Positions 17,368 through 18,560 of a stretch of DNA of 64,000 nucleotides are shown here, in pieces. The number at the start of each line of letters is the position of its first letter. Position 1 is the stretch's first letter. Source of the DNA: Heterobasidion occidentale (Eukaryota > Basidiomycota > Agaricomycetes > Russulales > Bondarzewiaceae). The position numbers were made by a program, and so were the translations under genes. The stretch spans positions 992,001 through 1,056,000 of the forward strand of contig JBCAQO010000014.1 of NCBI GenBank assembly GCA_039111635.1, read 5' to 3'. The notes under the pieces were generated by a model. The model was not told where the DNA came from and did no database searches. It saw nothing but the letters and a program-made list of their open reading frames with translations.

Positions 17368-18560
17368 ATGAACACCTTTTCTACTGCAGTGCCAGCGAAG
17401 TCGGCTTGGGCTCGCGGCCCTCCTCGTATATCAACAACACCGTCTTCTCAACAACCGCCCAAACCTCCGGCGTCACGCCTGGTGCAGCGGCCAATCCACG
17501 CTCGACGCACCCTCGCCAATCGCGCGCGCCAGCACAAGGCGTGTCCATCCAATACGGGCTCAGCGTCCCCCGCAGCACCAGCGCCGCCAAACCCGGTGCG
17601 TCTCGAGTCCGCGTCCACATACGACGATTGCTGCCACACATGGCCTTGTTGACGATATCGGGGGTGGCCAGTCACGTTTGGCTCGATAGACGACGCCTCG
17701 ACGCCGACTCCAGCGTCGCTGCCGGCGTGGTCGCGGCCGTCCAAGGCGGTCTCATCCGCAGGCAAACCGCGCGCTCGCCTCGCCGGAGCCGTCCCTCAGC
17801 ACCGAACACCCCCGCACACGCGCAGGAGGCACCGCGCACACACCGGCGCCTGTGTGGGTGCGCATGGGCAACGTGAGTCTGCCTGCCTGCTGCTCGCCGC
17901 GGGGCCGATCGCCGCTGACGTCGTCCCGCAGGGCGCTGGGCACGCGATGCCCGCGGAGCAGCTTATCCCGTGCGCGCTGGAATGGGACCAGCACGCGCCG
18001 CCGCACGAGGAGCAGGGTCCTTCGCGCCCTCCGCGCAGAAACACCGCGTCCCCGTCCTACACCGTTAGTGCTAGCGCCAGTGCCAACGTGCGGCCCGGCC
18101 CCGGACCTCGTCGCCTCAGCGCGCACGCGACCGCCTTCGTCCCCAGCGAGACGATGCCCAGCCTGGAATCCCGAGTCCACGCAGAGCCCGCGGCCGTCAC
18201 GCGGCTGCCATCGGCGCCGCGCACACCCTCCGCTCTCGCCACCGCCCGGTTCATCGACGACATCGAGGCGATCCCGTACCCCGCGGGCGTGCGGCGCCCT
18301 CCGGCAGCGCTCAACCTCAACCGCATCGAGCAGAAAGGCAAGTTCCGGTGCGTGCCCCGCCTCCCCGCCCTCTCCGCGCGCATACGAATCCCGGACTGAG
18401 TCTGCCCACGCGCCCGCGCCCGCGTGCCATGCGCCCCAGATACGACCGCGAGTTCCTACTGCAGTTCGCGTCGCTGTGCGTGGACATGCCCGACGGCCTG
18501 TCGGCGGCGCTCGACGCGCTCCGCCTCGCTCCTAGGCCGAAGCGCGACGCGTGGAACTGA
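17368..18560 (+). CDS. eIF4G-derived putative eIF4E-binding protein B
   Basis: A shortened tandem paralogue of the eIF4G gene at 21784. Shared motifs in order: KSAWARGPP, QGVSI, VTFGSIDDA, MPAEQ, ATAFVP, PSALATAR.I.DI..I.YP.GVR, then KGKFRYDREFLLQF with the YxxxxL(phi) eIF4E-binding core. It ends about 30 residues later at ALDALRLAPRPKRDAWN, so MIF4G and MA3 are absent. Exons: 17368-17595, 17672-17872, 17932-18347, 18440-18560. All three intron positions match the first three introns of eIF4G. Two frame corrections are needed in exons 1-2 (near 17456-17460 and between about 17740 and 17800); exons 3-4 read through cleanly. About 320 residues. It lacks the long charged coiled coil of eIF4G. 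Predicted role: cytoplasmic competitor of eIF4G for eIF4E (inference). It could alternatively be a young pseudogene, but the substitution pattern argues against that. Confidence 0.65.

What the first reader, a model, noticed from the sequence alone, without database searches (positions are those of the whole stretch)
17368..18560. Putative eIF4E-binding repressor born by tandem truncation of eIF4G
Seen: copy B keeps KSAWARGPP, VTFGSIDDA, MPAEQ, the PSALATAR segment and the eIF4E-binding KGKFRYDREFLLQF in the same order as eIF4G (21784-26832), with all three intron positions conserved, yet stops about 30 residues past the binding motif. MIF4G, MA3 and the charged coiled coil are gone. Established: YxxxxL(phi) motifs in eIF4G and 4E-BPs compete for the same eIF4E surface. 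Inference: B can bind eIF4E without recruiting eIF4A or the ribosome, a home-grown 4E-BP. I know of no described fungal 4E-BP with this origin.
Basis: partly seen in the sequence, partly recalled or inferred. Interest (0 to 1): 0.88.

Follow-up and report, generated by a model that had tools for sequence, protein, structure and literature searches.

The report
Short eIF4E-binding copy of eIF4G
A fungus carries, near its gene for the translation factor eIF4G, a shrunken copy that keeps the part gripping the mRNA-cap protein eIF4E but has lost the part that recruits ribosomes, so it may act as a home-made brake on protein synthesis; similar shrunken copies seem to have arisen several times in mushroom-forming fungi.

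Summary
Copy B (17368-18560) is a reduced duplicate of eIF4G. It has the N-terminal boxes, the eIF4E-binding domain (PF12152, 54.7 bits, cut-off 27) with YDREFLL, and three introns at matching places, and it stops 30 residues after LLQF, without MIF4G or MA3. The closest named homologue is a 315-aa Heterobasidion irregulare protein with the same layout, open as annotated. The fungus looks like Russulales, not Polyporales.

They do not prove a pseudogene: the window's own eIF4G has two such breaks and the neighbouring methyltransferase one, so assembly indels are likely. Against a homologous ORF, amino-acid-altering positions differ about half as often as introns plus third positions (6.0% vs 12.3%, p = 0.0055).

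Short PF12152 proteins without MIF4G are listed from Lactarius, Suillus, Mycena/Favolaschia, Trametes and others (some annotated partial). On a 78-column tree most sit with their own lineage's eIF4G; one clade is rejected (p-AU 1e-6).

Most likely B works like a 4E-BP, keeping eIF4E from eIF4G. Expression, binding and repression are untested. The main rival is a slowly decaying relic.

The parts
17368..17595 (+). B exon 1 (start codon 17368; box KSAWARGPP 17398-17424; GVSIQYGLSVPR box near the end); one frame interruption relative to the homologous ORF between about 17.46 and 17.48 kb
   Evidence: box position recounted by hand after one search showed it one base off
17596..17671 (+). B intron 1 (GT-AG), same place as eIF4G intron 1
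17672..17872 (+). B exon 2 (VTFGSIDDA box at its start); one frame interruption relative to the homologous ORF near 17.80 kb; about a third of the length of eIF4G exon 2
17873..17931 (+). B intron 2 (GT-AG), same place as eIF4G intron 2; copy A has an intron at a similar place
17932..18347 (+). B exon 3: MPAEQ, then first part of the eIF4E-binding domain (PSALATARFIDDIEAIPYPAGVRRP...KGKFR, from 18223); no frame-breaking indel against the homologous ORF
18348..18439 (+). B intron 3 (GT-AG), phase 2, same place as eIF4G intron 3 inside the eIF4E-binding domain
18440..18560 (+). B exon 4: YDREFLL (YxxxxL-phi) motif 18441-18461, rest of the domain to about 18536, stop 18558-18560
15092..16692 (+). 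copy A: second, more diverged eIF4G-like gene (N-terminal/middle part, no PF12152 or MIF4G match); intron 15572-15634; its upstream flank resembles B's (97 columns, 66%, E 2e-8)
19850..21050 (-). leucine carboxyl methyltransferase gene (PF04072-like) between B and eIF4G, ends approximate; one frame interruption near 20.82 kb
   Evidence: (below the Pfam cut-off frame by frame)
21784..26832 (+). parental eIF4G: exons 21784-22051, 22116-22783, 22840-24212, 24292-25669, 25736 onward; carries PF12152 and the genome's best MIF4G match; two frame interruptions near 25.98 and 26.18 kb relative to Bondarzewia eIF4G

Best explanation
B is a real, lineage-specific gene made by duplication of eIF4G at the DNA level (introns kept) followed by loss of the MIF4G/MA3 half and of internal low-complexity and coiled-coil stretches. 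Its product would be about 310 residues, probably mostly disordered (not predicted here), with the conserved N-terminal boxes and a complete eIF4E-binding domain. It would bind eIF4E on the surface used by eIF4G. Lacking the region that recruits eIF4A, eIF3 and the 40S subunit, it would make capped mRNAs bound to it unavailable for initiation: in effect a 4E-BP built from eIF4G itself. Shown: the anatomy, the homologue, the domain score and the substitution pattern. Inferred: expression, binding, competition and repression.
For: Domain over the cut-off (54.7 bits against 27 for the window copy; 57.3 for the H. irregulare copy). The same region of the H. irregulare copy matches a solved eIF4G chain, 6fbz_B, in a sequence-only comparison (E 9.7e-6). 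H. irregulare has the same layout in one 315-aa annotated protein. Between the two B copies the domain is 64 of 70 identical, while they are 45 of 71 and 47 of 70 identical to the window's eIF4G: the copies share changes of their own rather than drifting apart at random. Amino-acid-altering positions differ at 31 of 513 against 29 of 236 for introns plus true third positions (Fisher p 0.0055); against introns alone (17 of 138) p 0.017, third positions alone (12 of 98) p 0.049, and with the 5' flank added to the neutral set (33 of 289) p 0.0095; exons 3-4 alone 18 of 297, p 0.014. Exon 3-4 indels are multiples of three (2 of 2), whereas introns carry indels of 1, 1, 3, 6, 10, 13 and 20. Comparable short PF12152 proteins are listed from other mushroom lineages and are not one clade.
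Against: Two frame interruptions in this assembly: 2 of the 4 indels in exons 1-2 are not multiples of three. No transcript evidence. A long stem branch after duplication (0.76 changes per column against 0.11 between the two B copies), which also fits a relaxed phase. Constraint is only about two-fold and rests on one pairwise comparison with DNA inferred from a translated, unnamed ORF (P0002); the codon offsets in exons 2 and 4 and the pooling of sites were my choice, made after seeing the alignment. Only one named species and one unnamed cluster carry B; Bondarzewia, whose proteins are in the database, gave no B hit in two searches (candidates were capped). That eIF4A/eIF3 recruitment is lost rests on known eIF4G domain functions, not on a test here.
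Confidence: 0.5

Rival explanations
1. B (and A) are decaying relics of an eIF4G duplication; the domain survives only because not enough time has passed.
For: Two frame interruptions in B; copy A's 3' part continues in another frame; the 5' flank is still alike between window B and P0002 (5 of 60 scored positions differ), so little neutral time separates them; H. irregulare and window copies end differently after the domain (24 against 30 residues past LLQF).
Against: Reduced change at amino-acid-altering positions and frame-keeping indels in exons 3-4; open annotated frame in H. irregulare; the two B copies share many differences from eIF4G. The frame interruptions are matched by others in eIF4G (2) and in the methyltransferase (1) of the same window, so they are poor evidence of decay.
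Confidence: 0.33
2. B is a working gene that binds eIF4E but is not a general repressor: for example it holds eIF4E for storage, transport or mRNA decay, or tethers poly(A)-binding protein and eIF4E without a ribosome, favouring or silencing particular mRNAs.
For: B keeps N-terminal boxes that eIF4G also keeps, which a bare competitor would not need. Yeast p20 and Eap1 affect subsets of mRNAs and are said not to be inhibitors of cap-dependent translation as such (passages of PMC7139794).
Against: The roles of these N-terminal boxes in mushrooms are unknown to me and were not tested.
Confidence: 0.15

Closest known systems
eIF4G (parent; PF12152 + MIF4G + MA3)
   Same: N-terminal boxes, eIF4E-binding domain, three introns at the same places
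   Different: no MIF4G, no MA3, no charged coiled coil; shortened exons 2 and 3
Yeast p20/Caf20 and Eap1 (fungal 4E-BPs)
   Same: an eIF4E-binding YxxxxL-phi protein without eIF4G's ribosome-recruiting half (the latter recalled)
   Different: reported only from Saccharomycotina (PMC7139794, passages); their relation to eIF4G is not stated in what I saw; B is derived from eIF4G itself and keeps its whole binding domain
Metazoan 4E-BP1-3 (recalled)
   Same: would compete for the eIF4G site of eIF4E
   Different: known for phosphorylation control, of which nothing is known in B; no sequence comparison was made here
DAP5/eIF4G2 and PAIP1 (recalled)
   Same: partial relatives of eIF4G used as regulators
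   Different: they keep the MIF4G half and lack the eIF4E-binding part; B is the mirror image

Membership tests
eIF4G1 eIF4E-binding domain family (PF12152) | score over the curated cut-off of 27 bits | tested here: met
   54.7 bits for joined exons 3-4; single exons alone fall below (26.2 and 17.5 bits) because an intron splits the domain
eIF4G (full factor) | MIF4G (PF02854) and MA3 domains after the binding domain | tested here: not met
   B ends 30 residues after LLQF; of 7 MIF4G matches in the genome only the one at eIF4G lies in this region; no other Pfam family in the B pieces scanned
4E-BP (functional class) | YxxxxL-phi motif | tested here: met
   YDREFLL at 18441-18461; YDRAFLL in H. 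irregulare
4E-BP (functional class) | no ribosome/eIF4A-recruiting region | tested here: met
   no MIF4G or MA3 match in B
4E-BP (functional class) | binds eIF4E and competes with eIF4G | not testable with these tools
   no complex prediction or assay available
4E-BP (functional class) | represses cap-dependent translation | not testable with these tools
   needs an assay
Working gene (against pseudogene) | uninterrupted reading frame in this genome | tested here: inconclusive
   two interruptions, but eIF4G (2) and the methyltransferase (1) in the same window show the same kind
Working gene (against pseudogene) | purifying selection | tested here: met
   31 of 513 against 29 of 236 sites changed, p 0.0055; p 0.0095 to 0.049 with other neutral sets; one pair only, partly inferred DNA

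The most novel reading that the evidence does not exclude
Mushroom-forming fungi, for which my searches listed no described 4E-BP, repeatedly make their own by duplicating eIF4G and keeping only the eIF4E-binding part; B is the Heterobasidion-group case, and independent cases exist at least in Lactarius, Suillus, Mycena/Favolaschia and Trametes.
Probability: 0.35. Interest if true: 0.8.

Novelty: new variant of a known kind. Interest (0 to 1): 0.6.

Why it matters
The fungal 4E-BPs that I found described, p20 and Eap1, are reported only from Saccharomycotina, so how other fungi restrain eIF4E is open. A repressor made directly from eIF4G would show how a competitor can arise in one step from the factor it competes with, keeping the full binding domain instead of evolving a motif from nothing. 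If several mushroom lineages did this independently, it would be a natural replicated experiment on the birth of translational repressors, and each case can be tested with a simple pull-down.

Tried and rejected
Open frame as evidence: rejected, because at 70% G+C other frames are about as long. Frame interruptions as proof of a pseudogene: rejected after eIF4G and the methyltransferase showed the same kind. At 3 interruptions in roughly 5.8 kb of those two coding sequences (my estimate of their length), two or more in B's 0.97 kb has a Poisson probability of 0.09: suggestive, not clear. Splicing that would bypass the interruptions was considered and not pursued. Polyporales origin: rejected. 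Plain DNA alignment of A with eIF4G or B found nothing beyond the stretch where the two cut regions overlap; A was placed at the protein level. Finding H. irregulare's own eIF4G for a rate comparison failed: it is not among the 120 listed of 414 hits. No structure was predicted: a single chain would not test eIF4E binding. The bacterial, viral, phage, plasmid and E. coli collections were not searched for this fungal gene. The first eIF4E translations did not show the minus-strand loci usefully, and two loci were redone on the other strand. No paper was found for HETIRDRAFT_456359.

Rows dropped before counts. One search gave 99 short proteins; 26 of them hold at least 75% of the domain columns (P0002 falls short because its ORF reads into an intron). 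Two of those (P0135, P0142) were left out. Five more were dropped: P0141 (has MIF4G), P0147, P0134 and P0150 (contigs under 4 kb), and P0131 (annotated partial, dropped without a strict rule). The 25 public eIF4Gs in the trees, besides the window's, were chosen by hand for lineage spread from 120 listed. Tree labels come from names cut short in the listing; for P0124, P0126, P0131 and P0134 no organism was visible, and 'Lactarius' for P0124 and P0126 is my inference from their sequence. P0124, P0126, P0130, P0161 and P0178, all kept in the tree, are annotated as partial, so their lack of MIF4G is not secure.

After the filing check I moved B's start codon from 17369 to 17368 and the KSAWARGPP box by one base (one search showed the old box position out of frame; new positions recounted), corrected the number of public eIF4Gs to 25, and added the other neutral sets.

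Full report
WHERE IT LIES. The window is 64 kb of contig C14 of an unnamed 45-Mb genome in 159 contigs. The best eIF4G hits are from Stereum, Bondarzewia and Amylostereum. On the tree of the binding domain the window's eIF4G groups with Bondarzewia's and the B pair (93/91). The closest named homologue of B is from Heterobasidion irregulare. The organism is therefore probably a member of Russulales, perhaps Bondarzewiaceae (taxonomy recalled), and not of Polyporales. Around the finding the order is an arrestin-like gene (recalled from its look, not tested), copy A, copy B, leucine carboxyl methyltransferase (minus strand), eIF4G. Two of the 120 public eIF4G models listed contain the methyltransferase domain as well (P0060, P0120), which suggests that the methyltransferase-eIF4G neighbourhood is older than A and B.

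WHAT B IS. B repeats eIF4G's features in order: KSAWARGPP, GVSI.G..VPR, VTFGSIDDA, MPAEQ, PSALATAR...KGKFR, YDREFLLQF. Its three GT-AG introns lie at the same places as eIF4G introns 1-3, so the copy was made from DNA, not from mRNA. Exons 2 and 3 are much shorter than in eIF4G (201 against 668 nt; 416 against 1373 nt), so internal stretches were lost besides the C-terminal half. The joined exons 3-4 score 54.7 bits to PF12152 against a cut-off of 27, and translation ends 30 residues after LLQF. In the genome search PF12152 is found only at eIF4G and at B (4 exon-wise matches). MIF4G has 7 matches, one of them at eIF4G and none near B. Copy A is a second, more diverged relative of the N-terminal and middle part (protein match to eIF4G E 2e-25 within a small set of proteins, without low-complexity masking; E 7e-11 genome-wide). 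A has one intron at a place like eIF4G intron 2, and an upstream flank that resembles B's.

HOMOLOGUES. A search of the B frame 17653-18399 found 2 proteins at E <= 0.001 among 4597 candidates. P0001 is a 315-aa H. irregulare protein with the full layout. P0002 is a 413-aa unnamed ORF (7 member sequences) that reads through introns. Both are listed with PF12152. B exons 3-4 are 86% identical to P0001. Within the domain the two B copies agree at 64 of 70 positions, and with the window's eIF4G at 45 of 71 and 47 of 70. The last protein search, with a profile of P0001, B and eIF4G pieces, showed no further close B: apart from P0001 and P0002 no hit exceeds 64% identity to P0001, over at most 65% of it (candidates capped at 7995).

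FRAME INTERRUPTIONS. Against P0002, B shows one single-base interruption in exon 1 and one in exon 2, and none in exons 3-4. The same kind of test on the window's eIF4G against the Bondarzewia protein shows two interruptions in the C-terminal part. The methyltransferase frame also breaks once within a conserved stretch. This is the genome's only eIF4G by these searches, and eIF4G is essential where studied (recalled), so at least some of these are probably assembly indels. The interruptions in B cannot be read as decay without better sequence, nor can they be dismissed: at the rate seen in the two neighbours, two or more in B has a probability of about 0.09.

SELECTION. P0002 is one long ORF that runs in frame through exons 1 and 3 and out of frame through introns and exons 2 and 4. 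It therefore tells, position by position, how the homologous DNA differs from the window. Amino-acid-altering positions differ at 31 of 513 (6.0%); intron positions plus true third positions of exons 2 and 4 differ at 29 of 236 (12.3%; Fisher p 0.0055). With other neutral sets p is 0.017 (introns alone, 17 of 138), 0.049 (third positions alone, 12 of 98) and 0.0095 (5' flank added, 33 of 289); for exons 3-4 alone (18 of 297) it is 0.014. The indels in exon 3 are 12 and 6 bases and exon 4 has none; exons 1-2 have 3, 3, 1 and 1; introns have 10, 1, 13, 20, 1, 3 and 6. This is about two-fold constraint: better than a pseudogene, weaker than a housekeeping gene. It is a single pair, with the DNA partly inferred, and I chose the pooling after seeing the alignment. 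The 5' flank is also rather well kept (5 of 60 scored positions differ).

OTHER LINEAGES. The profile search returned 99 proteins of limited length (E <= 0.01, 7995 candidates scored). Many are N-terminal pieces or lie on short contigs. 26 hold at least 75% of the binding domain. I scanned nine of those 26 with Pfam, and all nine have PF12152 and no other family at E <= 0.01. On a tree of 20 short rows and 26 eIF4Gs the short copies of Lactarius (two groups), Suillus, Mycena/Favolaschia, Trametes, Armillaria, Daedale- and the B pair sit beside eIF4Gs of their own or a near lineage. Well supported branches force at least 5 changes, and a single clade is rejected (p-AU 1.1e-6). The tree has only 78 columns, 19 of its 43 inner branches are drawn open, and Schizophyllum's row has a very long branch and no eIF4G of its own genus beside it. 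Five kept rows are annotated partial. That suggests, but does not show, that short copies lie near eIF4G there too. Gene models and fragments were not checked against DNA.

HOW IT LIKELY WORKS. Established knowledge (recalled): YxxxxL-phi proteins bind the dorsal face of eIF4E, and eIF4G's MIF4G half recruits eIF4A and, with eIF3, the 40S subunit. The H. irregulare B copy matches the solved eIF4G chain 6fbz_B over the domain (E 9.7e-6; organism, Chaetomium, recalled). A protein with this domain and nothing after it should occupy eIF4E without recruiting a ribosome. That step is inference, as are expression and repression. The retained N-terminal boxes may add poly(A)-binding-protein or RNA contacts (recalled from yeast eIF4G), which could make B a clamp on mRNA rather than a bare competitor.

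WHAT IS KNOWN. A 2020 review of yeasts and protozoa states that p20 and Eap1 are found only in Saccharomycotina (passages, PMC7139794). A 2024 survey of fungal eIF4E counts 1-5 eIF4E genes per Basidiomycota species; the passages that I saw mention no such binding protein (PMC11791286). Searches for combinations of eIF4G, 4E-BP, eIF4E-binding, basidiomycete/Basidiomycota, Agaricomycetes, Heterobasidion and filamentous fungi showed no paper describing an eIF4G-derived fungal 4E-BP, judged from the listings only, some of them cut short. Subscription literature is mostly not held.

VERDICT. A working 4E-BP-like gene is the likeliest reading (0.5), a relic the main rival (0.33). The broader, more novel reading, repeated birth of such proteins from eIF4G in mushrooms, is open and testable.

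Noticed in passing
window 15092-16692: Copy A: a diverged eIF4G-like gene without the eIF4E-binding domain; it contains a direct repeat of 126 bp (16023-16148 and 16149-16274, 96% identical) that adds a second 42-residue unit in frame, and its 3' part continues in another frame.
   Followed up: partly
window 25.98 and 26.18 kb; 20.82 kb: Single-base frame interruptions in the window's eIF4G (two) and in the methyltransferase gene (one), which suggest indel errors in this assembly.
   Followed up: partly
window 55656-61784: Several inverted and direct repeat pairs of 70-88% identity (for example 56371-56685 with 58550-58234, 60207-60330 with 61661-61784), which looks like a small multi-copy gene cluster.
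   Followed up: no
window 21071-21315: Direct repeats (71 bp, 96%, and 62 columns, 82%) between the methyltransferase start and eIF4G.
   Followed up: no
genome C12:252208-252627, C8:1884801-1885244, C1:2198108-2198921 and C1:2222222-2223038: Four eIF4E-family loci; the two on C1 are near-copies about 24 kb apart; the C12 one reads VESYCRYFNW where canonical eIF4E has a VE-FW-like stretch, so it may not bind the YxxxxL-phi motif in the usual way (the canonical stretch is recalled).
   Followed up: partly
proteins P0040, P0158, P0189: eIF4G-derived pieces annotated together with a BTB domain (PF00651) in Lactarius and Armillaria: fusions or merged gene models.
   Followed up: no
protein P0145: Mycena epipterygia protein with PF12152 and PF02847 (MA3) but no MIF4G listed: another way of taking eIF4G apart.
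   Followed up: no
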